From Terebella lapidaria (taxonomy: Eukaryota > Annelida > Polychaeta > Terebellida > Terebellidae): 64,000 nt of DNA. The notes under the pieces are model-generated. The model ran no database searches. It was not told the DNA's origin and was given only the letters and a program-made list of their open reading frames with translations. The position numbers and the translations under genes are program-made. The stretch is taken from NCBI GenBank assembly GCA_949152475.1, contig OX424569.1, positions 33,401,950 through 33,465,949 on the forward strand, written 5' to 3'. Position 1 is the stretch's first letter; every line of letters starts with the position of its first letter. Positions 7,769 through 60,910 of the stretch are shown here, piece by piece.

Positions 7769-10618
7769 AGGGCATTTCGGCCCGAAATGCCCTTATGGTT
7801 TTGTCTGTTTTTTTTTTGTTTTTTTTTTTCTTCTTTTTTTAGGTTACCGGACCTTTGGTCCGATAACCTATTGGCATGGCGTTGCGTCCGTCGTCCGTCC
7901 GTCCGGCGTTAACATTTTTATCTTTAAAGTTAACGATCGAATCTTTCTGAAATTTTGCACAAAAATGCCTAAAAATATTTTGAGAAGGAGGTATTTTTTT
8001 GTTTTTTGATTTTCGCATTTTTTTCAAAATGGCGGCCGTTTTTGTCGAAAAACGCTCAATTTTGGACTTTGACGGCCATTTTCTCAAAAACTGTCTGATC
8101 AGTTTTGAGTTTTTGGTTTCAAAAGATTCCCCTCATATACCTCTGTGATATGTATAAGTTTGGTTGCCCTAAATCTGCCGGTTTCCGTGTGGCGGCCATT
8201 TTGAATTTTTGGCGGGTCGGCGAAAAAAAATTTTTTCGCCCCAAATCGCATTACTATCCATTTTGAGCCATTTCTAGGGCAAAAAAAATTTTTTCACCCT
8301 TTGAAAAAAATTTTGGACTTGGAAAATTTTCGGCACTTTTTCCCTTCATAATGGGAGCTGTCCGGACTGTACTCATAGAATGCTTGAAGATAGAGCTTAG
8401 AAATTGGCACTTTCAAATGGGAAGTCATATATGGCGACTTGTGTGGTGACCTTGAATTTGACCTTGGATGACCTTGAAAGGTCAAAACAGCCATTTTTGG
8501 GTCGAAAAACGCTCATATTTGCACATGGTCTGTATTTTCTCAAAAACTCTCTGATCAGTTTTGAGATTTTTGCTTTAAAAGATTCCTCTTATATACCTCT
8601 GTGACGTGTATAAGTTTTGTTGCCGTTGAATCGCCGATCTCAGTGTGGCGGCCATTTTGAATTTTTGACGAGTCAGCGAAAAAAATTTTTTTCGCCCCAA
8701 ATAACATTACTATCCATTTTGGGCCATTTCTAGGCAAAAAAAATTTTCATCCTTTAAAAAAAATTTTGGACTTGGAAAATTTTCGGCACTTTTTTCCTTC
8801 ATAATGGGAGCTGTCAGGACTGTACTCATAGAACGCTTGAAGATAGAGCTTAGAAATTGGCACTTTCGAATGGGAAGTCATATATGGCGACTTGTGTGGT
8901 GACCTTGAATTTGACCTTGGATGACCTTGAAAGGTCAAAACAGCCATTTTGGGGTCAAAAAATGCCCAGATTTGCCTTTGTAGATGAAATGCTTGCAGAT
9001 AGAGCTCATGTTTGCATTATGAACATATAGGAAGACATATATGGCACAACTAATGGTGGCCTTGAACTTGACGTCAGATGACCTTGAGTGCCAAATGTCT
9101 GACTTGGAATGTGTAAATTGACCTGAGCGGCCTAAACGATTCCACCCAACATATAGAATATCAAATGCCGCACACATACATGTAATGGTTACATCGAAAT
9201 TCATACGGATGACCTTGATTGGTAAATCCCAAGGTCATATGTTTACACTGCGAACCTTGATTGGTAAATCTCAAGGTCTGTTACCTGCCAATGCTACCAT
9301 GGCCAAACCAAAATTGTCCGGTAACCTATCTTAGCCTTTGGGCTAATTTTTTTACTTTCCGCCATTTTGGTTTCCGATCAATAACTCGGGAACGCCTGAA
9401 TGGATCTTGTCCAAATTTACACCACTGGTCAGAAATATTACATGGAAGACCCCTATTGTTTTGGAGGCGGCTCCGGGGTCCATGAGGTCCGTGAGGATGA
9501 AATCAAGGTTTATTTTGAGACTTGGTTTCCGATCAATAACTCAAAAAGTATTCATGCAATGGCAAGTATTCTATGCATGGGAGTTCATATCCCACCAGGG
9601 AAGAACCCTATTGATTTTGGGATCAATCCGTCGAACGACCTCTGACCTAGAACTCGGAAGAATTTTTGCTGATTCATCCTTGAGGCTTTCATGCATATCT
9701 CGGAAACGGTGCGTCGTAGAGCAAAACGGAGCTCAATTTCGGCCTCCTGGCACTAGACAAACTAGTCTAGGGGGTATCTTGGGTCGAAACGACACCTGGT
9801 GTCAATTTTTTTTTCGCCGACTCGGAACTTCCTGTTTGGCCGTATCTCGGAAACGGTGCGTCGTAGAGCGAAACGGACTCAATTCCGGCCTTCTGGTACT
9901 AGACAAACAAGTCTAGGGGGTATTTTGGGTCGAGACGACCCCTGGTGTTGAATTTATTTTCGCCGACTCGGCACTTCCTGTTGGGCCGTATCTCGGAAAG
10001 GGTGCGTCGTAGAGCGAAACGGAGCTCAATTCCGGCCTTCTGGCACTAGACAAACTAGTCTAGTGGGTATTTTGGGTCGAGACGACCCCTGGTGTCGAAT
10101 TTATTTTCGCCGACTCGGCACTTCCTGTTCGACCGTATCTCGGAAACGGTGCGTCGTAGAGCGAAATGGAGCTCAATTTCGGCCTCCTGGCACTAGTCAA
10201 ACTAGTCTTGAGGGTATCTTGGGTCGAGACGACTTCTGGTGTCGAATTTGTTTTTTTCACCGACTCGGCACTTTCTGTTTGGTTGTATGTCGGAAACGAT
10301 GCGTCGTACAGCGAAACGGAGCTTAATTTCAGCCTCCTGGCACTAGACTAACTAGTCTTGAGGGTATCTTGGGTCGAGACGACTTCTGGTGTCGAATTTT
10401 TTTTCACCGACTCAGCACTTCCTGTTTGCCGTATCTCAGAAACGGTCCGTCGTAGAGCGAAACGCAAAGATGCCTTAGGGTGGGGTATGTCGCTTAAACT
10501 TTGACCACGGACAGTTTCAGAGTCATCATGGTTCTGGACACGGTCTCTTAGGTATATGTTAGCTAGGAATAGAACTCACACGAAATGCCCCAAGGCATCT
10601 TCAGGCCTTGACGTCCAG
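7769..10618 (+). mobile_element. Family 4 Helentron-like element, copy a, interrupted by a family 1 element
   Basis: The 5' end is a hairpin at 7769-7793: AGGGCATTTCG, loop GCC, CGAAATGCCCT. The 13 bases TCAATAATTAGGG are shared with copy b at 53365, so the true start may be a few bases earlier. A T-rich stretch follows and is split by a family 1 element. The core (about 9650-10450) is a ~147-bp tandem repeat carrying 'tctcggaaacggtgcgtcgtag'-type phrases. The 3' end has CGAAATGCCC (complement of the 5' arm), then a CAAGGC...GCCTTG hairpin, then ACGTCCAG before TT. No protein is encoded. Confidence 0.75.
7841..9350 (+). mobile_element. Family 1 Helentron-like element nested in family 4
   Basis: It begins with the 29-base hairpin AGGTTACCGGACC-TTT-GGTCCGATAACCT and a CGTC-rich tract. 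It ends with GTCCGGTAACCT and the hairpin TTAGCCTTTGGGCTAA followed by T's. The inside holds two ~450-bp units with 'gatgaccttgaaaggtc' and 'ttcataatgggagctgt' phrases. The host family 4 sequence resumes at the T run after 9346, so the insertion went into a T tract with no clear target duplication. Confidence 0.8.
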
Positions 10619-12111
10619 TTATTAAACATGAATATATTTTCATTGCACACAGTAGCAGAACCAATTTGATTTTTTTCTACATGTATCAAATTATGGATCT
10701 CTGCGTTGTACTGTCCGAATAATGTCCACACTGTTAATACAAGTGATTGTCGTTGTTGATGTGATCAAGATGTTCAAATAAGAACTTACTCGAAGACTAT
10801 GTTAGTGTACATATATTGATATAAAATGTTATCTCAAGCTTATAAGGTCATGCCTATAGTCTGATCTAAACTAGAAACAATGTTTGGACCTTACCTGCTC
10901 ATACTGAAATGTTTCTGGAATTCACCGTCAAAAATACACACACAAAAACTGAGAAATTACTGATGCAAGGTGTTGAAGTATCGCCAAAGAAAACAATTTC
11001 CATTGTTTTAGCAGAGTTCCTGAGTAGAGGAATTGGAGTCCAAGCAGAAATTTTACACTTGTTGTGCTGAGTTCACTTGGTGGCTTCTGTTTCCGGATCT
11101 CGGAGCATTTTGTTTTTGTTCTTCGCCGTTAAACTCCAGGATGATTCTGTAACATCTTCTCGAGCTTGGCTCAAAACAAAGGAATTCTGTTTGAATAAAA
11201 TATGTCTTAAAATTTGTGACCTACTAATACACATTTTAGCCTTAACAAGTTATGAGGATGCAAATTGAATAAAAATTAGTGATACAGTAGTCTAGAATTT
11301 AGGGAAATTTTAAACAATGTAATCAAATAATTGCTTCACCATTATCGTCTCGACCAATATTCATAATGGCCTCGTGTATTTCCATCAAACTATATTCCAT
11401 CAAATTGTTTTGGCACTTTATGGAATTGTCCTCGTACTGACATTAGCAAGAATGAATGTTGTCCCTCTGATATCAAACACTGGTGATGTGTTTGTTGGTT
11501 CTATTCACCTGCTCAGGTATGTTATTATCTCTCAACAGGAATGATGTGTTTTATTATGATTACAGGCTTAGTTGTCTAGTATTTCTCATCAAATTTTCTT
11601 TTCGGAAAATTATGAAAATGACTGACTGTTATAGCCTGCCATTCGCAGCGTCTCACTGGTTCGTGTATTTATGTCAAAAAGTAGTGTATTTACCTGGTTT
11701 TGACCTGTGTGTCAGTTGAGATAATGTGTTTACATATTTCGGTTATTTTGATTCAAATGCTTCCTATAGAAATATAAACACAAGAAAGCCTTAGATTTGG
11801 TGATATTTTTCTAACCTTTCACACCTGCTGAATCCCAGGTAAAAAAAATCCCAATGTACAAGGGAGATTTCTCCTCAACTGATAATTGAACATCAGAAAG
11901 TATTTTCAATTGCCAACCAAAATATGACCAAAAACTATGACAACATATTTTAAAGACTGTTTCACAAAGATTAATATTTATGTCTTTATGTCCTGGCCCT
12001 CAAACATGTACATGTATACAAATTGTATTATGCTAGTATCGGTACTTGATAATGCAGGGATTTAAGTTTGCAGTTTTACCATGAATAAGTTCACACTAAA
12101 GTCAAGTTCAT
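10619..12111. other. Non-coding intron DNA
   Basis: No exon or repeat is recognised in this AT-rich stretch of the large ZNF385-like intron between 7421 and 27119. Confidence 0.5.
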
Positions 12112-15646: not shown

Positions 15647-17681
15647 AGGTTACCGGACCTTTGGTCCGTAACCTATTGGCATGGCGATGCGTCCAGCGTC
15701 GTCGTCCGTCGTCGTCGTCGTCGTCCATCAACAATTTTATCTTTAAAGTTTACGATCGAATTTTTCTGAAATTTTGCACAAAAATGCCTAAAAATATTTC
15801 GAGAGGGAGGTATTTTTTAGTTTTTTGATTTTCGCATTTTTTTCAAAATGGCGGCCGTTTTCTACGAAAAATGCCTAATTTTGGACTTTGGCGGCCATTT
15901 TCTCAAAATCTGTTCAGTAACTTTTTTTTCTTATTGATGAAAAACACTCCTCATATGTACCCCTGTGACATGTATAAATTTCGTTGCGCTTGAATCGCTT
16001 GAAGTGGGCCATTTTGGGCCCAAACTCGGCCCAAATGTGACTTTCCCATGTTAAATTTTCCTATGCTTTATAATGGCACACATTAAGCCTAATATCTCAC
16101 TTAATATTGAAATTAGAGACTAGGAATGAATTGTGGACATATAGGAAATGATATATGCTGAATATTCTCGTGACCTTGAATTTGACTTTTGACCTCATTT
16201 TCAAGGTCACAGGACAAAATGGCTAATATCTCGCTTATTATCGACTTTACAGCTTAGGAATCAGTTGTGAACATATAGGAAATGATATATGCTGAATATT
16301 CTTGTGACCTTGAATTTGACCTTTGACCTCATTTTCAAGGTCACATGACAAAATGGCTGATATCTCGCTTATTATCGACTTTACAGTTTAGGAATCAATT
16401 GTGAACATGTAGGAAATGATATATGCTGAATATTTTCGTGACCTTGAATTTGACCTTTGACCTCATTTCCAAGGTCGCAGGACAAAATTGCTAATATCTC
16501 GCTTATTATCGACTTTACAGCTTAGGAATCAATTGTGAACATATAGGAAATGATATATGCTGAATATTCTCGTGGCCTTGAATTTGAGCTTTGACCTCAT
16601 TTTCAAGGTCACAGGACAAAATGGCCAATATCTTGCTTATTAGGGACTTTACAGCTTAGGAATCGATTGTGAACATATAGGAAATGATATATGCTGAAAA
16701 TTCTCGTGACCTTGAATTTGACCTTTGACCTCATTTTCAAGGTCACAGGACAAAACGGCCAATATCTTGCTTATTAGCGACTTTACAGCTTAGGAATCAA
16801 TTGTGAACATATAGGAAATGATATATGCTGAAAATTCTCATGACCTTGAATTTGACCTTTGACCTCATTTTCAAGGTCACATGACAAAATGGCTACCGGT
16901 AATATCTCGCTTATTATCGACTTTACAGCTTAGGAATCAATTGTGAACATATAGGAAATGATATATGCTGAATATTCTCATGACCTTGAATTGACCTTTG
17001 ACCTCATTTCCAAGGTCACAGGACAAAATTGCTAATATCTCGCTTATTATCGACTTTACAGCTTAGGAATCAATTGTGAACATATAGGAAATGATATATG
17101 CTGAATATTCTCATGACCTTGAATTTGACCTTTGACCTCATTTTCAAGGTCACAGGACAAAATGGCCAATATCTTGCTTATTAGCGCCTTTACAGCTTAG
17201 AAATCAATTGTGAACATATAGGAAATGATATATGCTGAATATTCTAGTGACCTTGAATTTGACTTTTGACCTCATTTTCAAGGTCAACAGGACAAAATGG
17301 CTAATATCTCGCTTATTATCGACTTTACAGCTTAGGAATCAATTGTGAACATATAGGAAATGATATATTCTGAATATTTTAATGATATTGAATTTGACCT
17401 TTGACCTAAATTTCAAGGTCAGTCATTTTATTTTCAAAGTCAGATTACAAAATGGCTTATATCTCGCTTATTATCAAATTTACAGCTTAGGGGTCCATAG
17501 TGAACATATAGGAAATGATGTATGCTGAATAGTTTGGTGATCTAGAATTTAACCTTTGATCCCATTTTCAAGGTTAGAGATATGGCGATTTCAGTGGTCA
17601 CCTTGAATTTGACCTTCAACTTTCTCGGCTTAACTCTGTATATTTCTCCGGTAAGCTTTCTAGCCCATTGGTCTAATTTTT
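15647..17681 (+). mobile_element. Family 1 Helentron-like element, copy A
   Basis: The 5' hairpin here lacks one base of the usual right arm (GGTCCG-TAACCT), leaving C7 bulged. A GTC-rich tract follows. About ten ~133-bp tandem units (16085-17400) each carry TGACCTTGA, TGACCTTTGACCT and TCAAGGTCA, and then 'gcttaggaatcaattgtgaa'. The 3' end has CCGGTAAGCTT, TAGCCCATTGGTCTA and TTTTT, and the next element starts on the very next base. Confidence 0.85.
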
Positions 17682-17755
17682 AGGTTACCGGACCTATGGT
17701 CCGATAACCTATTGGCATGGCGTTGCGTCCGTCGTCCGGCGTCCGTCGTCGTCGT

Positions 17756-17787
<32 letters not shown>

Positions 17788-19646
17788 CACATTTTTATCT
17801 TTTTTGTTTACGGGCGAATTTTTCTAAAATTTCGCAGAAAAATACTTAAAAATAATTCAAGAAGGAATTATTTTTTAGTTTTTAGGTTACCGGACCTTTG
17901 GTCCGATAACCTATTGCCGTGGCGTTGCGTCCGTCGTCCGTCGTCCGTCGTCCGTCGTCCGTCCACATTTTTATCATTAAAGTTTACAGTCGAATATTTC
18001 TGAAATTTTGCACAAAAATACCTAAAAATATTTCCAGGAAAGGCTTTTTTTAGTTTTTTGATTTTCGCATTTTTTTCAAAATGGCGGCCGTTTTCGTCGA
18101 AAAATGACCAATTTTGGACTTTGACGGTTGTTTTCTCAAAATCTGTTCAGTAACTTTTTTTCTTATTGATACATGACACTCCTCCTATGTACCCCTGTGA
18201 CATGTATAAGTTTCGTTGCCCTTGAATCGCTCGAAGTGGGCCATTTTGGGCCCAAACTCGGCCCAAATGGGACTTTCCCATGTTAAATTCTCCTATGCTT
18301 TATAATGGGACACATTAAGCCTAATATCTCACTTAAAATTGAAATTGGAGACTAAGAATCAATTGTGGACATATAGGAAATGATATATGCTGAATATTCT
18401 CGTGACCTTGAATTTGACCTCTGACCTCGGTTTCAAGGTTAGAGCGGCCATTTTCGTCTAAAAATGGCCAATTTTGGACTTTGATGGTCGTTTTCTCAAA
18501 ACCTGTTCAGTAACTTTTTTTCTTATTAATGCATAACACTCCTCATATGTACCCCTGTGACATGTATAAATTTCCTTGCTCTTGAATCGCTCGAAGTTGG
18601 CCATTTCGGGCCCAAACTCGGCCCAAATGTGACTTTCCCATGTTAAACATTAAGCCTAATATCTCACTTAATATTGAGGTTAGAGACTAGGAATCAATTG
18701 TGGACATATAGGAAATGATATATGCTTGATATTCTCGTGACCTTGAATTTGACCTCTGACCTCGGTTTCAAGGTCAGAGCACAAAATGGCTAATATCTCG
18801 TTCATTATCGACTTTACAGCTTAGGAATCAATTGTGGACATATAGGAAATGATATATGCTGAATATTCTGATAACCTTGAATTTGACCTTTGACCTCATT
18901 TTCAAGGTCACAGGACAAAATGGCTAATATCTCGCTTATTATCGACTTTACAGCTTAGAAATCAATTGTGAACATATAGGGAATGATATATGCTGAATAT
19001 TCCCAAGACCTTGAATTTGACCTTTGACCTCATTTTCAAGGTCACAGGACAAAATGGCTAATATCTCGCTTATTATTGACTTTACAGCTTAGGAATCTAT
19101 TGTGAACATATAGGAAATGATATATGCTGAATATTCTCGTGACCTTGAATTTGACCTTTGGCCTCATTTCCAAGGTCACAGGACAAAATTGCTAATATCT
19201 CGCTTATTATCGACTTTACGGCTTAGGAATCAATTGTGAACATATAGGAAATGATGTATGCTGAATATTCTCGTGACCTTGAATTTGACCTTTGGCCTCA
19301 TTTCCAAGGTCACAGGACAAAATGGCCAATATCTTGCTTATTAGCGACTTTGCTGCTTAGGAATCAATTGTGAACATATAGGAAATGATACATGCTGAAT
19401 ATTCTAGTGACCTTGAATTTGACCCTTGACCTAAGTTTCAAGGTTAGTCATTTTATTTTCAAGGTCAGAATACAAAATGGCTTAGATCTCGCTTATTATC
19501 AAATTTACAGCTTAGGGGTCCATAGTGAACATATAGGAAATGATGTATGCTGAATATTTTGGTGATCTAGAATTTGACCTTTGATCTCATTTTCAAGGTC
19601 AGAGAACAAAATGGCTAATATATCGCTTATTATCATCTTTACATCT

Positions 19647-19693
19647 GCCCCTGATGACGCCAGTGTGTCTTTGGATAAACTATTTGGTCGGGC
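19647..19693 (+). ncRNA. Hammerhead-like motif, left copy
   Basis: Stem I is GCCC paired with GGGC at the two ends. The core strand CTGATGA fits CUGANGA. A stem II can form from GCCA and TTGG. The second core strand reads GATAA rather than GAAA, so it is off consensus. A short stem III ACT/GGT then leads to GTC before GGGC, the expected cleavage position. This is type I topology, probably weakened or inactive. Confidence 0.45.
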
Positions 19694-20010
19694 TTTGTTT
19701 CTATTGCAAAATGTTGTATTTTACGTTTCTTATTGGCATCATCAAAATTTGATTGTATTGGTGGTAATAGATTGATACTTACATTTATACCACTGAGTCG
19801 GTGTCACTGCTGGCGGACGTTGAATCTGTCCCCGAGGATACCATCAACTCAGTAGCCTTCGGGCTTGTGATTGGGTACTTTTGTACTTGTCATGTATCTA
19901 TTCCATGGGGTTAGATTCGGATTTCTAAATTATTTTCATAGGTTGTTGGGCAGTTGTATACTAATTCCATCTGGTGTACAGTAGAAACAACTACATTTAG
20001 CACATTGTCT

Positions 20011-20057
20011 GCCCCTGAAGACGCCAGTGTGTCTTTGGATAAACTGTTTGGTCGGGC
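20011..20057 (+). ncRNA. Hammerhead-like motif, right copy
   Basis: Same layout as the left copy, with CTGAAGA as the core (still CUGANGA), stem I GCCC/GGGC and GTC at the predicted cleavage point. The distance between the two predicted cleavage points is 364 nt. Confidence 0.45.
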
Positions 20058-21782
20058 TTTGTTTGTTTCTATTGCAAAATGTAGTATTTTACGTTTCTTA
20101 TTGGCATCATCAAAATCTGATTGAATTGGTGGTAATAGATTGATACTTACATTTACAGCATAGGAATCAATTGCGAATATAGAGGAATGATATATACTGA
20201 ATATTTTCATGACCTTGAACTTGAACTTTGATCTCATTTTCAAGGTCACATCACAGAATGGCTAATGTCTCACTTATTATCGACTTTACAGCTTAGGAAT
20301 TTATTGTGGACATACTAGAAGTGATATATTTGTTGAAAATTTCATGGCCTTGAATTTATCAGTGACTTTATTTTCAAGGTCAGTGGACGAAAGGCTAATA
20401 TCTAAAATGTATATTGTCCGGTAACCTTTCTTAGCCCTTGGGCTAATTTTTGATTTTCGCTTTTCCTTCAAAATGGCGGCCATTTTCGACGAAAAAGGCC
20501 TGATTTTGGACTTTGGCGGCCATTTTCTCAAAATCTGTTCAGTAACTTTTCTTCTTTTTGATACATAAGACTCCTCATATGTACTTCTATGATGTCTATA
20601 AATTTCGTTGCGCTTGAATCGCTCGAAGTGGGCCATTTTGGCCCAAACTCAGCCCAAATAGGACTTTCCCATGTTAAATTCTCCTATGCTTTATAATGGG
20701 ACACATTATGCCTAATATCTCACTTGATATTGAAATTAGAGACTAGGAATCAATTGTGGACATATAGGAAATGATATATGCTGAATATTCTCGTGACCTT
20801 GAATTTGACCTCTGACCTCAGTTTCAAGGTCAGAGCACAAAATGGCTTATATCTCGCTTATTATCGACTCTACAGCTTAGGAATCAATTGTGGACATATA
20901 GGAAATAATATATGCTGAATATTCTCGTGACCTTGAATTTGACCTCTGACCTCAGTTTCAAGGTCAGAGCACAAAATGGCTTATATCTCGCTTATTATCG
21001 ACTCTACAGCTTAGGAATCAATTGTGGAGATATAGGAAATGATATATGCTGAATATTCTGATGACCTTGAATTTGACCTTCGAACTCATTTTCAAGGTCA
21101 CAGGACAAAATGGCTAATATCTCGCTTGTTATCGACTTTACAGCTTAGCAATCAATTATGAACATATAGGAAATGATATATGCTGAATATTCTCGTGACC
21201 TTGAATTTGACCCTTGACCTAAATTTCAAGTTTAGTCATTTTATTTTCAAGGTCAGAATACAAAATGGCTTATATCTCGCTTATTATCAAATTTACAGCT
21301 TAGGGGTCCATAGTGAACATATAGGAAATGATATATGCTGAATATTCTAGTGACCTTGAATTTGACTTTTGACCTCCTTTTCATGCTCAACAGGACAAAA
21401 TGGCTAATATCTTGCTTATTATCGACTTTACAGCTTAGGAATCAATTGTGAACATATAGGAAATGAGATATTCTGAATATTTTAATGATATTGAGTTTGA
21501 CCTTTGACCTAAATTTCAAGGTGTCATTTTATTTTCAAAGTCAGATTACAAAATGGCTTATATCTCGCTTATTATCAAATTTACAGCTCAATGGTCCATA
21601 GTGAACATATAGGAAATGATGTATGCTGAATAGTTTGGTGATCTAGAATTTAACCTTTGATCCCATTTTCAAGGTTAGAGATATAGCGATTTCAGTGGTC
21701 ACCTTGAATTTGACCAACAACTTTCTCGGCTTAACTCTGTATATTTCTCCGGTAACCTTTCTAGCCCATTGGGCTAATTTTT

Positions 21783-34399: not shown

Positions 34400-34536
34400 T
34401 GAACATATGACCTTGATATGATTGGTAAATCTCAAGGTCATATGTTCATACTGCGAACATTGATTGTTACCTGCCAATGCTGCCATGGCCAAACCAAAAT
34501 TGTCCGGTAACCTATCTTAGCCTTTGGGCTAATTTT
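34400..34536 (+). mobile_element. 5'-truncated family 1 element
   Basis: Only the last ~135 bases remain. They match 9220-9350 ('gccatggccaaaccaaaattg') and end in GTCCGGTAACCT, TTAGCCTTTGGGCTAA and TTTT. Confidence 0.75.
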
Positions 34537-35231
34537 GGTTTTTTGTTTGTCATGATTTTTCCAAAATGGCTGCCAATCTTAATTTTGAATTTTGGCGGCC
34601 ATTTTCTCAAAATCTGTTCAGTAACTTTTTTTCTTTTCGATGCATAACGCTCCTCATATAACTTATACATATCCCCCTGTGTATTTTAAGTTTCGTTGCC
34701 CTTGAATCACTCGAAGTGGGCGATTTGGCCCAAACTCAGCCCAAATGTGACTTTCCCATGTTAAAATATCCTATACTTCATAATGGGACATATTATGCCT
34801 AATATCTCACTTAATATTGAGATTAGAGACTAGGAATCAATTGTGGACATATGGGAAATGCTGAATATTCTTTTGACCTCGAATTTGACCTCTGACCTCA
34901 GTTTCAAGGTTAGAGCACAAAATGGCTAATATATCGCTTATTATCAACTTTACAGCTTAGGAATCAATTGTGGACATATAGGAAATGATATATGCCAAAT
35001 ATTCTGATGACCTTGAATTTGACCTTTGACCTCATTCTCAAGTCACAGGACAAAAGGGCTGAAAATCTTGCTTCGTATCAACTTTACAGCTTAAGAATCA
35101 ATTATGAACATACTAGAAATGATATATATGCTGAACATTCTCATGACCTTGAATTGACCAATGACCTTATTTTCAAGGTCACGGGACAAAAGGCTAATAT
35201 TTAAAATATATTTGTCTGGTAACCGTTTTTT
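34537..35231 (+). mobile_element. Family 1 element lacking both terminal hairpins
   Basis: It starts inside the 5' module ('ccaaaatggctgcc') and ends at CTGGTAACCG just before the next element's 5' hairpin. Four core units are present with the usual TGACCTTGA phrases. Confidence 0.7.
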
Positions 35232-37767: not shown

Positions 37768-38403
37768 AGGTTACCGGACCTATGGTCCGTAACCTATTGG
37801 CATGGCGATGCATCCGGCGTCGTCGTCGTCCGTCGTCGTCCGTCAACAATTTTATCTTTAAAGTTTACGATCGATTTTTTCTGAAATTTTGCACAAAAAT
37901 GCCTAAAAATATTTCGAGAGGGAGGTATTTTTTAGTTTTTTGATTTTCGCATTTTTTTCAAAATGGCGGTCGTTTTCGTCGAAAAATGGCCAATTTTGGA
38001 CTTTGGCGGTCGTTTTCTCAAAATCTGTTCAGTAACTTTTTTTTTTATTGATGCATAACACTCCTCATATGTACCCCTGTGACATGTATAAATTTCGTTG
38101 CCCTTGAATCGCTCGAAGTGGGCCATTTTGGGCCCAAAATCGGCCCAAATGGGACTTTCCCATGTTAAATTCTCCTATGCTTTATAATGGGACACATTAA
38201 AGCCTAATATCTCACTTAATATTGAGATTAGAGACTAGGAATCAATTGTGGACATATAGGAAATGATATATGCTGAATATTGTCGTGACCTTGAATTTGA
38301 CCTCTGACCTTGGTTTCAAGGTCAGAGCGACCGTTTTCGTCGAAAAATGGCCAATTTTGGACTATGACGGTCGTTTTCTCAAAATCTGTTCAGTAACTTT
38401 TTT
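37768..38403 (+). mobile_element. Family 1 element, copy F (5' part only)
   Basis: It starts with the 5' hairpin (with the one-base-shorter right arm) and a CGTC tract. It runs through the 5' module and part of a second copy of it, and stops at 'gtaactttttt', where copy G begins. The remainder is not found after copy G, so F is truncated. Confidence 0.75.
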
Positions 38404-40028
38404 AGGTTACCGGACCTTTGGTCCGATAACCTATTGCCGTGGCGTTGCGTCCGTCGTCGTCGTCCGTCGTCGTCCGTCGTCGTCCGTCTACATTTTTATC
38501 TTTAAATTTTACAATCGAATCTTTCTGAAATTTTGCACAAAAATGCCTAAAAATATTTCGAGAGGGAGGTATTTTTTATTTTTTTGATTTTCGCAATTAT
38601 TTCAAAATGGCGGCTGTTTTCGTCGAAAAATGGCCAATTTTGGACTTTGGCTGTCGTTTTCTCAAAATCTGTTCAGTAACTTTTTTTCTTATTCATGCAT
38701 AACACTCCTCATATGTACCTCTGTGACATGTATAAATTTCGTTGCCCTTGAATCGCTCGAAGTGGGCCATTTTGGGCCCAAACTCGGCCCAAATGGGACT
38801 TTCCCATGTTAAATTCTCCTATGCTTTATAATGGGACACATTAAGCCTAATATCTCACTTAATATTGAGATTAGAGACTAGGAATCAATTGTGGACATAT
38901 AGGAAATGATATATGCTGAATATTGTCGTGACCTTGAATTTGACCTCTGACCTCATTTTCAAGGTCACAGGACAAAATGGCTAATATCTCGCTTATTATC
39001 GACTTTACAGCTTAGAATTCAATTGTGAACATATAGGAAATGATATATGCTGAATATTCTCATGACCTTGAATTTGACCTTTGAACTCATTTTCAAGGTC
39101 ACATGACAAAATGGCTAATATCTCGCTTATTATCGACTTTACAGCTTAGGAATCAATTGTGAACATATAGGAAATGATATATGCTGAAAATTCTCGTGAC
39201 CTTGAATTTGACCTTTGACCTCATTTTCAAGGTCACAGGACAAAATGGCCAATATCTTGCTTATTAGCGACTTTACAGCTTAGGAATCAATTGTGAACAT
39301 ATAGGAAATGATATATGCTGAATATTTTTGTGACCTTGAATTTGACCTTTGACCTCATTTTCAAGGTCACAGGACAAAATGGCCAATATCTTGCTTATTA
39401 GTGACTTTACGCCTTATGAATCAATTGTGAACATATAGGAAATGATATATGCTGAATATTCTCATGACCTTGAATTTGACCTTTGAACTCATTTTCAAGT
39501 TCACATGACAAAATGGCTAATATCTCGCTTATTATCGACTTTACAGCTTAGGAATCAATTGTGAACATATAGGAAATGATATATGCTGAAAATTCTCGTG
39601 ACCTTGAATTTGACCTTTGACCTCATTTTCAAGGTCACAGGACAAAATGGCTAATATCTTGCTTATTATCGACTTTACAGTTTAGGAATCAATTGTGAAC
39701 ATATAGGAAATGATATATTCTGAATATTTTAATGATATTGAATTTGACCTTTGACCTAAATTTCAAGGTCAGTCATTTTATTTTCAAAGTCAGATTACAA
39801 AATGGCTTATATCTCACTTATTATCAAATTTACAGCTTAGGGGTCCATAGTGAACATATAGGAAATGATGTATGCTGAATAGTTTGGTGATCTAGAATTT
39901 AACCTTTGATCTCATTTTCAAGGTTAGAGATATGGCGATTTCAGTGGTCACCTTGAATTTGACCAACTTTCTCGGCTCAACTCTGTATATTTCTCCGGTA
40001 ACCTTTCTAGCCCATTGGGCTAATTTTT
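38404..40028 (+). mobile_element. Family 1 element, copy G
   Basis: It has a complete 5' hairpin, a CGTC tract, the 5' module, about eight core units and the 3' end CTCCGGTAACCT plus TAGCCCATTGGGCTA and T's. It is inserted in, or abuts, the T run of copy F. Confidence 0.8.
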
Positions 40029-42193: not shown

Positions 42194-45039
42194 GTATCCC
42201 CCGAACAAAGTTCGGCGGATACTATGGATTTGGCTTCGTCGTCCGCGTCCGCGTCCGCGTCCGCGCCCGCGTCCGCGTCCGCGTCCGTGTCCGCGTCCGT
42301 GTCCGCGTCCGCAGAGATTTTCTTGTGAACGCGCTACAGGCCGCAATTCTCATCCGATCACCATTATTTTTTGCAGGCACATATATAATGGTAAGATCCC
42401 GACACCAATCGATTTTGGTTGCCGTGGCAACTGAATTGGTCGTTTGGGGACACATTTTGCATTGAAAACAGCCTGTTTGAGACACATGGCTTGTGAACGC
42501 GCTATAGGCCGCAATTCTCACCCGATCACCATTATTTTTCGCAGGCACATATATTATGGTAAGATCCCGACACCAATCGATTTTGGTTGCCGTGGCAACT
42601 GAATTGGTCGTTTGGGGACACGTTTTGCATTGAAAACAGCCTGTTTGAGACACATGGCTTGTGAACGCTCTACAGATGGCAATTTTTGACGAATCTCGAT
42701 AATATTTGGAAGTGTTGTTGGGAAGGGCTGTCACACGAAACCAATCGTTTTTTAGAATGATCATATACATATTAATATGTTAACAGCCTAACTTATTACA
42801 GAATTTTGAAATATCCATTTTGACATGTACGATCATTCCAATAGCCTGTACAGTGGAAGGTAATGACACTGGTTTCTTGTTCAGAATGGAGAATTGAAGT
42901 TTCCAGTGAAAACAGGACAATATTACTGAATAAGTTAACATTAGTTCTATTAGTTAAGTCTATTATTGTCCACAATAAAAATAGTTAAGACGAGAAACGT
43001 TTATTATTAAGCTCAACAAGGTAAAGGTTTTGTCCAGTACAAATTTCATGGGTGTAACTGAATAAGTTAACATTATTTTTAATAGTTAAGTCTATTATTG
43101 ACCACAATAAAAATAGTTAAGACAAGAAATATTTATTATTAACCTCAACAAGGTAAATGTTTTGTCCAGTACAAATTTCATTGGTGTAACTGAATAAGTT
43201 AACATTATTTTCACTAGTTAAGTCTATTATTGACCACAATAAAAATAGTTAAGTCTATTATTGACCACAATAAAAATAGTTAAGATGAGAAATATTTATT
43301 ATTAAGCTCAACAAGGTGAAAGTATGTCCAGTACAGATTTCATGGGTGTACTGAATAAGTTAACATTATTTTTACTAGTTTAGTCTATTATTGACTACAA
43401 TAAAAATAGTTAAGACAAGAAATATTTATCATTGGGCTCAACAAGGTAAAGATTCTGTCCAGTAGACATTTTATGTCTGTAACCAAATAAGTTAACATTT
43501 TTTTTGCTAGTTAAGTCTATTATTGACCTCAATAAAAATAGTTAAGATGAGAAACAATTATTATTGAGCTCAACAAGGTTAAGGTTTTGTCCGGTAGAAA
43601 TTTCTGGGTGTAACCGAATAAGTTAACTTTATTTTTACATGTTAAGTCTATAAGTGACGACAATGAAAATAGTTAAGACAAGAAATATTTATTATTGGGC
43701 TCAACAAGGTGAAGGCTTTGTCCAGTAGAGATTTTATGGCTGTGACCAAATAAGTCAACATTATTTTTTTGCTAGTTAAGTCTATTATTGATCACAATAG
43801 CTTTTTATGAAAACATTGATCAACTTTTACTTTGAATTTCAACTTGAGACCATGTTTGGCTCAAATTATGAGTTAAAATATAACTTATGGTGAAAAATTC
43901 GATCTGGCTCCAATTTTGTCATCTTGAAATGCAGTTTTGGTCAACTTTTACTTTGAATTTCAACTTGAAAGCATGTTTGGCACATATTATGAGTCGAAAT
44001 ATAACTTATGGTGAAAAGTTCGATTTGGCTCCATTTTCGTCATCTTGAAATGCAGTTTTGGTCAATTTTTAGTTTGAATTTCAACTTGAAACCAAGTTTG
44101 GCACATATTATGAGTTAAAATATAACTTATGATGGAAAGTTCGATCTGGCTCCAATTTCTTCATCTTGAAATGCAGTTTTGGTAAACTTTTAGCTTGAAT
44201 TTCAACTTGAAACCAAGTTTGGCACATATTATGAGTTAAAATATAACTTATGACGAAAAGTTCTATCTGGCTCCAATTTCGTCATCTTGAAATGCAGTTT
44301 TGGTCAACTTTTACATTGAATTTCAACTTAATACCAAGTTTGGCACATATTATGAGTTGAAATATAACTCATGGCGAAAAGTTTGATCTGGGTCCAATTT
44401 CGTCATCTTAAAATGCAGTTTTGGTAAACTTTTAGTTTGAATTTCAACTTGAAATCAAGTTGGGCAGGTATTATGAGTTAAAATATAGCTCATGACGAAA
44501 AGTTTGATCTGGCTCCAATTTTGTCATCTTGAAATGCAGTTTTGATTACCTTTTACTTTGAATTTCAACTTGAAACCATGTTTGGCACATACATGTATTA
44601 TGGATCGAAATATAACTTATGGTGAGAAGTTCAATCTAGCTCCAATTTTGTCATCTTGAAATGCATTTTTGGTCAAATTTTACTTTGAATTTCAACTTGG
44701 AACCAAGTTTGTAAAATATTCTGAGTTGAAATATAAATAGGTGAAAAGATTGATCTATCTGTATTTTCGTTATTTTATCAAACATGTCGAATGGAAATTC
44801 ATATAAAGAGATTTCAGTGGTGATTTTGAATTCGACCTTCAATAACCTCGGAAAATCAGTGCAGCAATTTTGGTGGGGAAAAGAAAACAGTTGTGACTTG
44901 AGATTTAACATTTCTCTGGTAATCTTTTTTAGCCCTTACTCTAGTTTTTCACAATTGACAGTGATATATTTGGGGCAACAGAGATGATAGGGCTACGGGG
45001 GATACACCCAAGCGGTCGTAGGCGACCGGAAGCGTCTAG
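42194..45039 (+). mobile_element. Family 2 Helentron-like element, copy 1
   Basis: The 5' hairpin is GTATCCCCCGAAC-AAA-GTTCGGCGGATAC (42194-42222), followed by a CCGCGT tract (42234-42314). A ~180-bp unit is duplicated (about 42310-42660). Two tandem arrays follow: about 42920-43800 (period near 130, 'aataagttaacatta') and 43805-44790 (period near 120, 'tttgaatttcaacttgaaac'). The 3' end has CGGGGGATAC, the hairpin CGGTCG-TAGG-CGACCG, and GTCTAG before TT. The layout resembles bivalve elements with tandem-repeat cores. No protein is encoded. Confidence 0.82.
44810..44946 (+). mobile_element. Family 1-like 3' end fragment inside family 2 copy 1
   Basis: The phrase 'acatttctctggtaatctttttt' followed by 'tagccctt' resembles the family 1 3' end ('tatttctccggtaacctttctagccc'). 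Family 2 copy 2 lacks it at the matching place (about 60340). It looks like a captured or remnant end. Confidence 0.5.
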
Positions 45040-45545
45040 TTGTTATTGAATCATGTGACATATTTGATGAAATCCAGATCGATTCATTTCGATGTATGTC
45101 TGTAATAAAGTCCTATTTGCATCAATCTCTCGTTGATCAGACGCAATGTCTGCGCTTTGAAAATCGGTGAGGTGCTGAGTCATTAAGGGATTGGATCTTG
45201 CTGCTTTTTGTACTTTATTAAATTTGAAACACTCCCTAGAAAATAACAACATATTTTAGATAACTTAATTAAATGCAATATGTGTAAATAATTGAGATTC
45301 ACACATAACATACAATCAAGACATCCTGCAGAGTTCACCTGTCCGTTTAAGGTGTGGTATGGGCACATTTGTGAGCTATAGTATATTTGAGTTGGTGCTA
45401 GGGGCCTGTCTAGCCAATGACATGAGGTGGGGTTAGATCACCATGGTGAAAGTCAAATACCGCATAGCAAACAGCCTTTGCAATAACCACTTGCGATTTT
45501 ACTTTTGTTCAAGTTTAGAGTTATATACCTTAATCATATTATATA

Positions 45546-53364: not shown

Positions 53365-54703
53365 AGGGCATTTCGGCACGAAATGTCCTTATGGTTTTGT
53401 CAGAATTTTTTTTTTTCTTTTTTTTTTTTCATTTTTTTTTTTTTTTTTTTTTCACTTTTCGGTTTCCGGACGATAACTTAAGAACGCCTTGACGAATCTT
53501 CGAGAAATTTTCACCAGTTATCACATATATAACATAGATGAACCCTATTGTTTTGGAGCCGGCTTCGAGGTCCGGTTAGTCCGTGAGGATGAATTTTGAG
53601 TCAAATGGTTTCCGGATGATAACTCGAAAAGTACTTGTGCTACCATTCTGAAACTTGACATATATGTTGATATAGTGTCGCAGAGGAGCCCTATCGATTA
53701 CGGGGTCAATACCTTGAACGACCTTTGACCCAGGGGCCAAAAACAATTTTGATGAGTCATCCTTGAGGCTCATTGCATATCTCGGAAACGGTGCGTCGTA
53801 GAGCGAAACGGACGTTATTTTCGGACTCGTCGACCTAGACAAACATGTCTTAGGGGTATTATGGATGAACTTTGACCTTGACCCAAATTTTTTTCGCTGA
53901 GTCGGCATTTTTCGTTTTCTTCGATATCTCGGAAATGGTGTGTCGTAGAGCGAAACGGACGTCATTTTCGGACTCGTCGACCTAGACAAACATGTCTTAA
54001 GGGTATTACAGATGACCTTTGACCTTGACCTTGAATTTTTCTGCCGAGTCGGCATTTTTCGTTTTCGTCGATATCTCGGAAACGGTGCGTCGTAGAGTGA
54101 ATCGGACGTTATTTTCGGACTCGTCGACTTTGACCTTGACCCGAGTTTTTTTTGCCGAGTCGGCATTTTTCGTTTTCTTCAATATCTTGGAAACGGTGTG
54201 TCGTAGAGCGAAACGGACGTTATTTTCGGACTCATCACCCCAGACAAACATGTCTGAAGGGTATTATGGATGAACTTTGACCTTGACCCGAAATTTTTTT
54301 GCCGAGTCAGCATTTTTCGTTTTCTTGGATATCTCGGAAACGGTGCGTCGTAGACCGAAACGGACATTATTTTCGGACTCGTCGACCTAGACAAACATGT
54401 CTTAAGGGTATTAGGGATGACCTTTTACCTTGACCTTGAATTTTTCTGCTGAGTCGGCATTTTTCGTTTTCTTCGATATCTCGGAAACGGTTTGTCATAG
54501 AGCGAAACGGTCGTTATTTTCGGACTCTTACACTAGGCAAATATGTCTTAGGGGTATGTTGAGTCAGCTTGATCCGTCGTCTTGGATTGAAATGGATGTA
54601 TCTACATAATCATTTTGGCTGCAGAGTTGTCAGTAATAAACAGTTCACCTGTGATTGTGCTGTGTATCGAAATGCCCCAAGGCCTCTAGGCCTTCACGTC
54701 TAG
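53365..54703 (+). mobile_element. Family 4 Helentron-like element, copy b
   Basis: The 5' hairpin is AGGGCATTTCG-GCA-CGAAATGTCCT (53365-53389), followed by a long T tract. The core is a ~120-150-bp tandem repeat ('atctcggaaacggtgcgtcg', 'cctagacaaacatgtctta') at about 53770-54560. The 3' end is CGAAATGCCCC, an AAGGCC-TCTA-GGCCTT hairpin and ACGTCTAG before TT. Unlike copy a it is not interrupted. The minus-strand open frames across it come from the repeat period. Confidence 0.78.
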
Positions 54704-54984
54704 TTCTTTTTGTGATTCTTATATTGGTTCTCTATGAAAGAGATGCAATCTTTGTACCACTTCCCAAATGAAATTGTTTGATTAAAAATGCAAATGTCAA
54801 TTCCTGAATAAATTCGTTTTATGGACATGATGTTGTTCTTGATGATGTCTGTCTTGTAGTTTGCTGGAGTGACACATTGCAATGTAAGCTTAGAATGTTG
54901 CAGGTAATGTTCATTTCCCCTCCATGTATTATATAAATCAACATGACTAAAGTAGATAGACAGAAAAAAAATTAATCCAAAAAA

Positions 54985-55715
54985 AATTAAGGGCTAAGAT
55001 AGGTCACCGGACATTTTTGGTTTTAAGCATTGTAGGGGACATATGACCTTGAGATTTACCAATCAAAGTCATTCAATGTCACCATTAGGTGTGCACCGTG
55101 TGCTGCTATTTTGACCTTTCAACATGTTCAAGGTCATCGAAGGTCAAATTCAAGGTCACCACACAAATTGCCATATATGACTTCCTATTTGAAAGTGCCA
55201 ATATCTAAGCTCTATTTTCAGGTATTCTATGAGCAGTTGTGGCAGCTCTCATTATGAAGGGGAAAAGTCCCAAAAAATTCTCAAAGGGTGAAAAAAATTT
55301 TTGCCTAGAGATGACCTAAAATGGATAGTACTTTTAATGAGATTTGGGGCAAACAAAAATTTTTCACTCACCTGGCAAAAAATAAAAATGGCCGCCACAC
55401 GCAGACCAGTGATTCAAGGGTAACGAAACTTATACATATCATAAAGGTACTTAAGGGGAAGCTTTTGAAACAAAAATCTCAAACTGATCAGACTGTTTTT
55501 GAGAAAACGGCTACCACAGTCCAAAATTGACCATTTTTCATCAAAAATGGCTGCCATTTTGGAAAAAAAAAGCAAAAAAAAAGCATTTTTGTGCAAAATT
55601 TCAGAAGAATCTGCCTGTAAACTTCAAAGATAAAAATATGATTGGATGATGGAAGGATGACGGACGCAACACCACGACAATAGGTTATCGGACGGTACCA
55701 TAGGTCCGGTAACCT
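54985..55715 (-). mobile_element. Family 1 Helentron-like element in reverse orientation
   Basis: Read on the minus strand it starts with AGGTTACCGGACC at 55715 and ends with GTCCGGTGACCT and TTAGCCCTTAATTTTT near 54985. It is short (about 730 bp) with one 5' module and no tandem core. Flanking A runs are the T runs of the minus strand. Confidence 0.75.
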
Positions 55716-56526: not shown

Positions 56527-56794
56527 AATATTTCAGTTGAGAACTGTGTACATCAAACTAAAGTGATTGATAAATTGGTTGTGGTAATATCGTGTATACA
56601 TATATTGGATATTGAACTTCGTGCATATCATGGTTTGATATTCCAGGACTAAGATTACTGAGTACCAAATAGTGAATGATCCTAATTAAGGAATCGACTC
56701 ACACATTCAGTTGAAGACGTGTTTGTAGTGAACATGTAAGCAGTGAACACACAGATTGCTGTAATGGTTTTATGTTGTGCACTGATCCTTACAG

Positions 56795-57456: not shown

Positions 57457-60400
57457 AGCTTACCGGCCCTTTGGGCCGATAAGCTATTGTCGTGGTATTT
57501 CGTCCGTCGTCCGTCCGTCGTCCGTCCGGGTCTGTAACTTTTTTTTGACATGATGAATTTCCCCATAAATTTGTCAGAACATACCTTGGGCCAGTATCTA
57601 AAGACGTTTTTTTAATTTTTTTGATTGAATCGTTTTTGCCTATTTGGCGGCCATTTTTGACGAAAAATTGCCAATTTTGGACTTTGGAGGCCATTTTCTC
57701 CAAAACTGTCTGATCAGTTTTGAGATTTTTGTTTCAAAACACTCCTCTCATGTACCTTTATGACGTGTATAAGTTTCGTTGCCCTTGAATCGCCGGTCTG
57801 CTTGTGGTGGCCATTTTGATTTTTTGACGGGTCGGCGAAAAAAAAATTTTTTGTCCCAAATCAAGTCACTATTCGTTTTGAGCCATTTCCAGCAAAAAAA
57901 AAAAAAAATTTTTTTTGGGCCATTGAAAAATTTTTCGGACTTAGAAAATTTCACCCAATTTTCCTTCATAATGGGAGCTGTGCAGAGTAAACTCATAGAA
58001 CACTTGAAGATAGAGCCTAAGTATTGGCACATTCAAATGGGAAATCATATATTGCGGTTTGAGTGATGACCTTGAATTTGACCTTCAATGACCTTGGAAG
58101 GTCAAAACGACGTTTTTTGTCAAAAAATGGCTAATTTTGGATTTTTTATGGCCATTTTCTCAAAAACTGTGTGATCAGTTTTGAGATTTTTGTTTCAAAA
58201 CATTCCACTCATGTACCTTTATGACGTGTATAAGTTTCGTTGCCCTTGAATCGCCGGTCTGCTTGTGGCGGCCATTTTGATTTTTTGACGAGTCGGCAAA
58301 AAAAAAATTGTTTGTCCCAAATCAAGTCACTATTCGTTTTGAGCCATTTCCAGAAAAAAAAAAAATTAATTTTTTTTTGGCCATTGAAAATTTTTTGGAC
58401 TTAGAAAATTTCACCCAATTTTCCTTCATAATGGGAGCTGTGCAGAGTAAACTCATAGAACACTTGAAGATAGAGCCTAAGTATTGGCACATTCAAATGG
58501 GAAATCATATATTGCGGTTTGAGTGATGACCTTGAATTTGACCTTCAATGACCTTGGAAGGTCAAAACGACGTTTTTTGTCAAAAAATGGCCAATTTTGG
58601 ATTTTTGATGGCCATTTTCTCAAAAACTGTCTGATCAGTTTTGAGATTTTTGTTTTAAAACATTCCCTTCATGTACCTCTTTGATGTGTATGAGTTTCGT
58701 TGCCCTTGAATTGCCTGTCTGCGTGTGGCGGACATTTTGATTTTTTGACGGGTCAGCAAAAAAATTTTTTTTTGGTCCAAAATCAAGTCACTATTCGTTT
58801 TGAGCCATTTCCAGCAAAAAAAAACGAATTTTTTGTATCCCCCGAACAAAGTTCGGCGGATACTATGGATTTACGATCGTCGCGCCGCCGCCGCCGCCGC
58901 CGCCGCGTCCGCGTCCGCAGACACTTTCTTGTGAACGCGCTACAGCTTACAAATCTGAACCGATTTTGATAATATTTTATATGGACATGACTTATGGTGA
59001 GATCTCAACACCTATCGATTTTGGTTGCCATAGCAACCAAAATAGCCGATTGGGGTAACATTTTGTGCTCAAATTAGCCTGTTTAACACACATGGGTTGT
59101 GAACGGTCTACGGGTGGGAGTTTTCGATGAATGATGATGAAATCGCACAGGCTCAATGAGAAAGACCATCACACGAAACCTATTGTTTTTCAGAATGATC
59201 GAATAAATATTAATAAGTTTGAGAGGTTAACTTATTACAACAATTAAAATGCCTACTTTGACATGTGTGATCACTCCAATAACCTGTACTATGAAAGCAA
59301 ATTGCACTGGATTCTTGTTCAGAATACAGAACTGATGTTTTTGGTGAAAACAGAACAATATTACTGAATAAGTTAACATTGGTTTTACTAGTTAAGTCTA
59401 TTATTGACCACAATAAAAATAGTTAAGATGAGAAACATTTATTATTGAACTCAACAAGGTAAAGGTTTTGTCCAGTAGAGATTTCACAGGTGTAACCAAA
59501 TAAGTTAACATTATTTTCACTAGTTAAGACTATTATTGACCACAATAAAAATAGTTAAGACAAGAAACATTTATTATTGGGCTCAACAAGGTAAAGCTTC
59601 TGTGCAGTAGAGATTTCATGGCTGTAGCCGAATAAGTTAACATCATTTTTACTAGTTAAGTCTATTATTGACCTCAAGAAAAATAGTTAAGACAAGAAAC
59701 ATTTATTATTGAGCTCAACAATTTAAAAGTTTTGTCCAGTAGAGATTTCATGGGTGTAACTGGATAAGTTAACATTATTTTTACCATTAAAGTCAATTTT
59801 TACTTCGAATTTCAACTCGAAACCAAGTTTGGCACATATTATGAATTAAAATATAATTTATGGTGAAAAAATCGATCTGGCTCCAATTTCGTCATCGTGA
59901 AATGCAGTTTTGGTAAACTTTTACTTGAATTTCAGCTTGAAACCAAGTTTGGCACATAATTATTATGAATTAAAATTTAAATTATGGTGAAAAGTTTGAT
60001 CTGGCTCCTATTTCGTCATCTTGAAATGTAGTTTTGGTCAACTTTTACTTTGAATTTCAACTTGGAACCAAGTTTGGCACATAGTAGGAGTTGAAATATA
60101 ATTTATGGTGAAAAGTTCGATCTGGCTCCAATTTAGTCATCTTGAAATGCAGTTTTTGTCAACTTTTGCTTGAATTTCAACTTGGAACCAAGTTTGTCAA
60201 ATATTCTGAGTTGAAGTATAACTTTAAGTGAAAACTTTTATCTGGCTGTAATTTCGTTATTTTATCGAACATGTCGAAATGGAAATTCGTATGCAGTGAT
60301 TTTAGTGGTGATCTTGAATTCGACCTTCAATAAGCTTGAAAGGTTTCACACTCACAATGTACATCAGTGATATATTTGGGGCAACAGGGATGATAGGGCT

Positions 60401-60910
60401 ACGGGGGATACACCCAAGCGGTCGTAGGCGACCGGAAGCGTCTAGTTTTTTTGGCCATTGAAAAATTTTTTGGACTTAGAAAATTTCGCCCAATTTTTCC
60501 TTCATAATGGGAGCTGTGTGGAGTAAACTCATAGAAGACTTCAAAATAGAGCCTCAGTATTGGCACATTCAAATGGGAAATATATTGCAGTTTGAGTGAT
60601 GACCTTGAATTTGACCTTCAATGACCTTGAAAGGTCAAAAACGATGAATTTTGTCTTTGGTGGCCATTTTGTCAAAGTCTATTCAGACAGTTTTTCTCAA
60701 AATAATGTATATGATTCTCTTTATCTACCTTTGTGATGTGTTATTTGATTTCGTATTATAGTCCATGCAGAAAATGTGTTTCCAGCAACATTTACGAACA
60801 TGTTTTGACATTTAGAGTTCAAGATCAGTGTAACAATTTATATGTTGGAAAATCAATACTCTGCGTTTCTCATGATTGCCGGTAAGCTACAGCACCCTTG
60901 GTGCTATGTT
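57457..60910 (+). mobile_element. Family 3 Helentron-like element interrupted by a family 2 element
   Basis: The 5' hairpin is AGCTTACCGGCCC-TTT-GGGCCGATAAGCT (57457-57485), followed by a GTCC tract. The body is a ~445-bp unit repeated about three times ('actgtctgatcagttttgag', 'gaccttcaatgaccttg'). It is closely related to the body of family 1. The 3' end is GCCGGTAAGCT with hairpin AGCACC-CTT-GGTGCT (60891-60905). A family 2 copy splits the last unit at a T run. Confidence 0.8.
58835..60445 (+). mobile_element. Family 2 Helentron-like element, copy 2, nested in family 3
   Basis: The same 5' hairpin and 3' end as copy 1 are present: GTATCCCCCGAAC...GGATAC, a CCGCCG/CCGCGT tract, two tandem arrays (about 59360-59790 and 59795-60250), CGGGGGATAC, the CGGTCG-TAGG-CGACCG hairpin and GTCTAG. 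It lies between T runs of the host unit, which resumes as 'ttttttggccattgaaaaa'. It is shorter than copy 1 because the arrays have fewer units. Confidence 0.85.

What the first reader, a model, noticed from the sequence alone, without database searches (positions are those of the whole stretch)
7769..60910. Five sequence-distinct element families share one terminal design
Families 1-5 start with a hairpin of 9-13-base arms and a three-base loop, and carry near the 3' end a ~10-base exact complement of the 5' start. A separate 3' hairpin follows, and they end at TT or a T run. Families 2 and 4 also share a ...CGTC(T/C)AG|TT end. Helentron/Helitron2 elements are known for a 5' terminal repeat matched by a 3' subterminal one, a 3' hairpin and T-T targets, so this suggests one transposition machinery mobilising many unrelated cargoes. 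The local 5' hairpin is a part I do not recall being described.
Basis: partly seen in the sequence, partly recalled or inferred. Interest (0 to 1): 0.8.

Follow-up and report, generated by a model that had tools for sequence, protein, structure and literature searches.

The report
Five non-autonomous Helentron (Helitron2-type) families
The window holds five families of passenger mobile DNA that share the already described end structure of rolling-circle transposons called Helentrons, so the design is ordinary, though one conserved flaw in the starting hairpin may hint at how their copying stops.

Summary
Five terminal-sequence classes (A-E) start with a hairpin of 9-13-base arms and a three-base loop, carry a 9-10-base complement of that start near the 3' end, then a second hairpin, and end at TT or a T run. 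By my reading 13 of 17 copies in the window have both ends. Genome-wide the 5' hairpins number about 12,400 (A), 1,188 (B), 917 (C), 5,620 (D) and 562 (E); reversed patterns gave none. Insertions examined fall in T runs and add only T's. The genome has Helentrons with Rep, helicase and endonuclease domains.

These are new families of a known kind. No Rep element with the same ends was found, so 'one machinery' is unproven.

Possibly new: in A, C and D the hairpin is broken at arm position 7 of 13, while the 3' copy has the pairing base in 96-99 of 100 listed sites. This could bias the switch that ends replication.

The parts
7769..10620 (+). Family B copy 1 (AGGGCATTTCG-GCC-CGAAATGCCCT start; ends GACGTCCAG|TT), interrupted by an A element at 7841-9350
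7841..9350 (+). Family A copy carrying a 453-bp tandem repeat, nested in B copy 1; both ends
15647..17681 (+). Family A copy with the 134-bp array; hairpin has a one-base bulge; 3' repeat with one mismatch
17682..21782 (+). Family A copy interrupted by another A copy at 17884-20449; both ends
17884..20449 (+). Family A copy nested in the previous one; both ends
31983..33660 (+). Family E (9-base arms AGGAAGAGC, loop AGA; 3' GCTCTTCCT + weak hairpin + CTTG|TT); contains an old D-type 3' end near 33395-33440
34504..34535 (+). Lone family A 3' end
34536..35231 (+). Partial family A element with degenerate 3' end
35232..37208 (+). Family A copy with the 134-bp array; both ends
37768..38403 (+). 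Family A 5' end only (bulged hairpin), interrupted by the next copy
38404..40026 (+). Family A copy with the 134-bp array; both ends
42194..45041 (+). Family D copy 1 (microsatellite, 168-, 132- and 121-bp arrays); an A-like 3' end remnant lies inside near 44907-44950
53365..54705 (+). Family B copy 2 with 147-bp array; ends CACGTCTAG|TT
54985..55715 (-). Worn family A copy on the minus strand; 5' hairpin with an insertion, 3' repeat with one mismatch, 3' hairpin not intact
57457..60911 (+). Family C copy with 460-bp array, interrupted by D copy 2; ends GTGCTATG|TTT
58835..60447 (+). Family D copy 2 nested in C; sister 460-bp units give the empty site

Best explanation
A-E are five families of non-autonomous Helentron/Helitron2-type rolling-circle elements (HINEs), most carrying tandem arrays between short terminal modules. 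The Rep nuclease of a resident Helentron is thought to cut at the T|5' end, the helicase peels off the strand, and replication ends when the 3' subterminal repeat and hairpin are reached. There the 3' repeat can pair with the 5' arm, which otherwise sits in the 5' hairpin, and the freed strand is joined into a T-rich target. Shown here: the anatomy, copy numbers, co-occurrence of both ends, the target, the absence of duplication beyond T's in the cases examined, and Helentrons with Rep, helicase and endonuclease domains in the genome. Inferred: that those Helentrons move A-E, and every biochemical step.
For: Design present in five sequence classes, 0 rows in 10 Markov controls. Genome counts with 0 for reversed patterns: A 12,412 rows, B 2,376 rows (palindrome, 1,188 sites; one mismatch allowed), C 917, D 5,620 (one mismatch allowed), E 1,124 rows (562 sites); 3' ends A 8,059, C 1,525, D 2,282, E 698 with three mismatches allowed. 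Ends co-occur in the right order and strand. D 5' flanks: TT in 30 of 30, T at -5 in 29 of 30, A at -3 in 26 of 30. Filled/empty pair for B inside 99.9% identical segments: GAGTAATT[element of 3,460 bases]TTTGAAC against GAGTAATTTGAAC, i.e. plus two T's only. Nested D-in-C and A-in-A have unfilled sister copies. Rep domain: 150 scored hits of 234 candidates, 0 in 14 control genomes, many in frames above 2,000 aa; OTU, Helitron_like_N, PIF1 and Exo_endo_phos domains. A and C differ by a three-way change: arm position 3, its hairpin partner and its 3'-repeat partner all change together (sequences).
Against: No autonomous element with A-E ends was found; flanks of three Rep elements gave no convincing end pair, and two further copies of one lineage were followed without reaching an end. 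The A, B and D sequence found near Rep genes looks like separate insertions. Three of the five 3' ends (A CTAA, D CTAG, and B CTAG in most copies seen) also fit the CTRR rule of canonical Helitron1, although starts and target do not. The joined flanks of A-in-A differ from the empty site by four T's, so a short T duplication cannot be told from T's carried by the element. E's 3' hairpin has only 4 bp.
Confidence: 0.9

Rival explanations
1. They are foldback or MITE-type DDE elements whose terminal inverted repeats only look Helentron-like.
For: Short inverted repeats near both ends; bivalve Pearl elements were first called MITEs, as stated in PMC7492417 (passage).
Against: The inverted repeat is terminal at 5' and subterminal at 3', a 3' hairpin follows, and the B filled/empty pair adds only TT. 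PF14214 Rep elements are abundant. I did not search the genome for DDE transposases.
Confidence: 0.04
2. Several independent Helentron lineages, each with its own end sequences, mobilise A/C, B/D and E separately, rather than one machinery for all.
For: Four Rep clusters at 80% identity among 30 of the 150 Rep loci, 44-74% identical to each other. A/C share end sequence, B/D share GTCTAG|TT.
Against: No Rep lineage has been tied to any end set; the shared design, loop length and TT target allow one machinery.
Confidence: 0.55
3. The mismatch at arm position 7 of 13 is only a founder effect, or a way to avoid unstable perfect palindromes, and has no role in ending replication.
For: All copies of a family descend from few masters. 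B (11 bp) and E (9 bp) hairpins are perfect but shorter, as palindrome avoidance would predict. In the folding model the two local hairpins stay the best fold in the linear arrangement for all five families.
Against: The position is free to change among unpaired states (A: 90 A, 6 deletion, 2 C and 2 rows of one G site in 100 rows; D: 91 C, 7 A, 2 T, 0 G in 100), yet the paired state stays rare; and it recurs in D, which is unrelated in sequence to A/C. The copies are not independent, so this is suggestive only.
Confidence: 0.6

Closest known systems
Helitron2 (Bao & Jurka 2013, PMC3627910; passages read)
   Same: 5' asymmetric terminal repeat forming a 5' hairpin, 3' repeat about 20-30 bp from the end upstream of a 3' hairpin, T targets without duplication in Helitron-1N1_CRe, compensatory changes, and the proposal that repeat pairing destroys the 5' hairpin to set the end point.
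   Different: The resident Rep proteins here carry an endonuclease domain, which Helitron2 lacks according to PMC4067079. A fixed hairpin defect is not mentioned in the passages I read; figures and supplements were not seen. The paper also reports Helitron2 elements with duplications of 7-19 bp, not seen here.
HINE / DINE-1 (Thomas et al. 2014, PMC4067079; passages read)
   Same: Sub-terminal inverted repeats, paired or palindromic 5' repeat, 3' palindrome, central tandem repeats or microsatellite, TT insertion with variable terminal T's.
   Different: There autonomous partners with matching ends were found; here none was.
Cg_HINE of the Pacific oyster (Vojvoda Zeljko et al. 2020, PMC7492417; passages read)
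   Same: Eleven elements with their own ends and satellite-like central arrays, 5' repeat + complementary inverted repeat + microsatellite (GTCC-type in several), 3' repeat + palindrome, TT sites, no duplication; autonomous partners also not identified.
   Different: Arms of 7-12 bp with spacers of 1-12 there, 9-13 bp with loops of 3 here. They report one mismatch between the 5' and 3' repeats as the predominant state in most elements; here the 3' repeat letter at position 7 fits the 5' arm in 96-99 of 100 rows and the hairpin carries the mismatch. No sequence comparison with Cg_HINE was possible.

Membership tests
Helitron2/Helentron-type non-autonomous elements (HINE) | 5' terminal repeat paired in a local 5' hairpin | tested here: met
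   genome counts
Helitron2/Helentron-type non-autonomous elements (HINE) | 3' subterminal inverted copy of the 5' repeat, upstream of a 3' hairpin | tested here: met
   all five classes; E's hairpin is weak; genome counts for A, C, D, E; B 3' ends seen at 4 places only
Helitron2/Helentron-type non-autonomous elements (HINE) | Insertion in TT / T-rich sites, no target duplication beyond T's | tested here: met
   D 5' flanks in 30 loci; one B filled/empty pair; nested A and D copies against sister sequence. C and E not tested by empty sites
Helitron2/Helentron-type non-autonomous elements (HINE) | Autonomous partner with the same ends encoding Rep-helicase(-endonuclease) | tested here: inconclusive
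   Helentron proteins present, but no end match found in the flanks read, a handful of 150 Rep loci
Helentron (autonomous, in this genome) | Rep/helicase fused to an AP-type endonuclease, sometimes with an OTU domain | tested here: met
   Six pieces of three elements scanned: Rep and OTU in the C8 element, PIF1 and Exo_endo_phos in C8, C9 and C7; C9's endonuclease lies in an overlapping second frame
Canonical Helitron1 | 5' TC end | tested here: not met
   elements start AGG, GTA or AGC after T's
Canonical Helitron1 | 3' CTRR end | tested here: inconclusive
   A (CTAA), D (CTAG) and B copy 2 and two B copies elsewhere (CTAG) fit; B copy 1 (CCAG), C (TATG) and E (CTTG) do not
Canonical Helitron1 | Insertion between A and T | tested here: not met
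   D sites have TT in 30 of 30; the B pair is TT

The most novel reading that the evidence does not exclude
The 5' hairpin is held weaker than the 5'-3' repeat duplex so that strand exchange with the 3' repeat is favoured and marks the end of replication. In families with long arms (A, C, D) this is done by a fixed defect at arm position 7 of 13, which the 3' copy does not have; in families with short arms (B, E) by length. Model energies: hairpin -9.6, -11.6, -11.2, -8.8, -8.1 against arm:3'-repeat duplex -12.9, -13.9, -13.0, -14.1, -11.5 kcal/mol for A-E; a paired base would bring A, C and D to -14.4, -16.0 and -13.9.
Probability: 0.25. Interest if true: 0.55.

Novelty: new member of a known kind. 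Interest (0 to 1): 0.32.

Why it matters
It shows a genome in which more than 20,000 5' ends of five such families (sum) spread tandem repeats under one end design, as in oysters. If the hairpin defect matters, it would turn a published but, as far as I saw, untested idea about how Helitron2-type elements know where to stop into a one-base experiment.

Tried and rejected
Looking for the autonomous partner: the scan of the flanks of three Rep elements gave no convincing end pair. In the same call exact A-D end motifs (not E) were sought in 36 fetched stretches around Rep genes; two hits came up, a D 3' end upstream and an A 3' end 7 kb downstream of the C9 gene. Comparing two copies of the 2,310-aa Helentron to find its ends failed because they match over all that I fetched, well over 10 kb, so they may be a very long element or a segmental duplication; the first break point turned out to be a B insertion. 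Three C9-type Helentrons have a D-like 3' end and D-type 121-bp repeats upstream of the Rep frame; I read this as an old nested insertion, not as proof of partnership. A search for further families with the same design in 361 kb of held sequence (A-E motifs excluded) gave only the minisatellite. Folding of the head-to-tail junction kept the local hairpins in A, B and D and switched to repeat-repeat pairing in C and E only; the linear arrangement switched in none, which weakens a purely thermodynamic switch. Rep clustering was faulty (one strand only) and was redone.

Counts of the letter at arm position 7 are read by eye from the first 100 rows listed per search, from contigs C1-C3, and are not independent copies. 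3' repeat letter: G in 99 (A), 98 (D) and 96 (C) of 100 rows; the rest are 1 T (A), 1 A and 1 T (D), 3 A and 1 T (C). Hairpin letter in family C: A in 100 of 100. Among non-A rows of family A (326 in all, 100 listed): 77 C, 1 T and 22 rows of 11 palindromic G sites; so G, the pairing base, does occur. In one search I used 71 of 100 listed C starts, 100 of 100 C ends, 100 of 100 D starts and 88 of 100 D ends, cut to the stretch that both lists cover; for E the first 7 of 100 listed ends and 35 of 50 listed start sites. In one search an ungapped comparison of the left flanks gave 2,272 of 2,996 because of a shift; the gapped figure (99.9%) is.
Full report
What was claimed.

Setting. The window is part of a 761.6-Mb assembly of 438 contigs (G000:C16:33401950-33465949). 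It has no Rfam hit at the gathering threshold and no tRNA and many tandem arrays. The GTCC-type microsatellite next to the 5' hairpin in A, C and D resembles that of oyster HINEs, so I infer a bivalve, without a test.

The observation. Classes A-E start with a hairpin with a three-base loop, and carry a 9-10-base complement of the start close to the 3' end, a further hairpin, and TT or a T run. A scan for the full design gave 60 rows in the window and none in 10 Markov controls; rows outside A-D were one short motif inside A and a minisatellite at 62.3-63.2 kb. E and one B copy were missed by that scan. I count 13 of 17 copies with both ends, one of them worn. Nested copies (A in B, A in A, D in C) explain the crowding.

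Genome-wide. The 5' hairpins have 12,412 rows (A), 2,376 (B, palindrome rows, 1,188 sites, one mismatch allowed), 917 (C), 5,620 (D, one mismatch allowed) and 1,124 rows (E, 562 sites); 3' ends number 8,059 (A), 2,282 (D), 1,525 (C) and 698 (E, three mismatches allowed). The reversed control patterns gave 0 in these calls. On contig C1, 48 of 71 C starts and 64 of 100 D starts have a 3' end on the same strand within 7 kb downstream, against 0.5 and 1.4 by chance; a 3' end upstream on the same strand occurs for 4 and 7, on the other strand for 1 and 0.

Target. Thirty D starts are preceded by TT in 30, with T at -5 in 29 and A at -3 in 26. A 3,460-base B element is present in one and absent from the other of two 99.9% identical segments; the filled site has two more T's than the empty one and no other duplication. 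D in C and A in A have unfilled sister sequences in the same arrays, differing in T-run length and small changes; A in B has only a loosely alignable sister.

Machinery. The Rep domain PF14214 gave 150 scored hits of 234 candidates, with 0 in 14 control genomes; many lie in frames above 2,000 aa. The C8 element has OTU, Rep, PIF1 and Exo_endo_phos domains; helicase and endonuclease were also seen in the C9 and C7 elements. The thirty top-scoring loci form four clusters 44-74% identical, and each cluster's representative has an HAH motif. These are Helentrons by domain content. I did not find one with A-E ends. The oyster study reports the same gap.

Mixed 3' ends. A ends CTAA|T, D CTAG|T, and B CTAG|T in three of four copies seen, all of which fit the CTRR 3' end of canonical Helitrons (rule quoted); C and E do not. 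The 5' ends and the TT target are of the Helitron2/Helentron kind. I take this as a shared ancestral feature of the 3' end, not as membership in Helitron1.

Comparison with the literature. Bao & Jurka 2013 describe this pair of features for Helitron2, including the 5' hairpin formed by the 5' repeat, compensatory changes, and the idea that pairing of the two repeats destroys the hairpin and sets the end point. Thomas 2014 and Vojvoda Zeljko 2020 describe it in HINEs, and the Fusarium study (PMC5148889) repeats the definition. I read passages of these four papers, not their figures or supplements.

What may be new. A, C and D hairpins have 13-base arms broken at position 7; the letter varies (A, C, deletion in A; C, A, T in D) but the pairing base G is rare: one site in 100 rows for A, 0 of 100 for D and for C; 11 G sites appear among 100 rows chosen for not having A. 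The same position in the 3' copy is G in 99, 98 and 96 of 100 rows for A, D and C. Model energies put every natural hairpin below its arm:3'-repeat duplex in stability, while a paired base would lift A and C above it and D about level with it. Against this: B and E have no defect, founder effects can fix a letter, A and C are kin, and the folded junction keeps local hairpins except in C and E. I searched the paper library for Helentron with mismatch, hairpin and termination (listing only) and saw no title on this, which is weak evidence of novelty.

Covariation. Between A and C, arm position 3 changes G to C together with both its hairpin partner and its 3'-repeat partner, and position 11 changes with its hairpin partner only, as expected if both pairings are used (sequences).

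Verdict. A confirmed observation, correctly placed in a known superfamily; five new families of a known kind, with one possibly informative structural detail.

Noticed in passing
G000:C1:22848668-22851541: Four D 3' ends spaced exactly 947 bp apart, suggesting a head-to-tail array of whole elements or long units.
   Followed up: no
L053 and L057, around position 1500: D elements inserted directly after another D 3' end and exactly at an A-like 3' end (GGGCTAATT|GTATCC): A ends offer the TWATT target that D prefers.
   Followed up: partly
L041 1-300, L084 2290-2501, L085 2160-2501: Three Helentron copies share a D-like 3' end followed by D-type 121-bp repeats just upstream of the Rep frame.
   Followed up: partly
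window 9340-9347, 45030-45041, 54690-54705: The 3' ends of A, D and B read CTAA or CTAG before the T's and so fit the canonical Helitron CTRR rule although the 5' ends are Helitron2-like.
   Followed up: partly
window 44907-44950: An A-like 3' end remnant lies about 90 bases before the true 3' end of D copy 1, as if D arose by read-through past an older end.
   Followed up: no
window 62320-63173: Palindromic minisatellite of 22-23-bp units (ACAGCGTAATAACGCTGT type) with many internal inverted repeats.
   Followed up: no
window 12111-12639: Inverted repeat with 168-nt arms, 83% complementary, possibly a foldback or MITE-like element.
   Followed up: no
window 27418-29310: 630-aa open frame with a zf-met zinc finger match, perhaps a host gene exon.
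   Followed up: no
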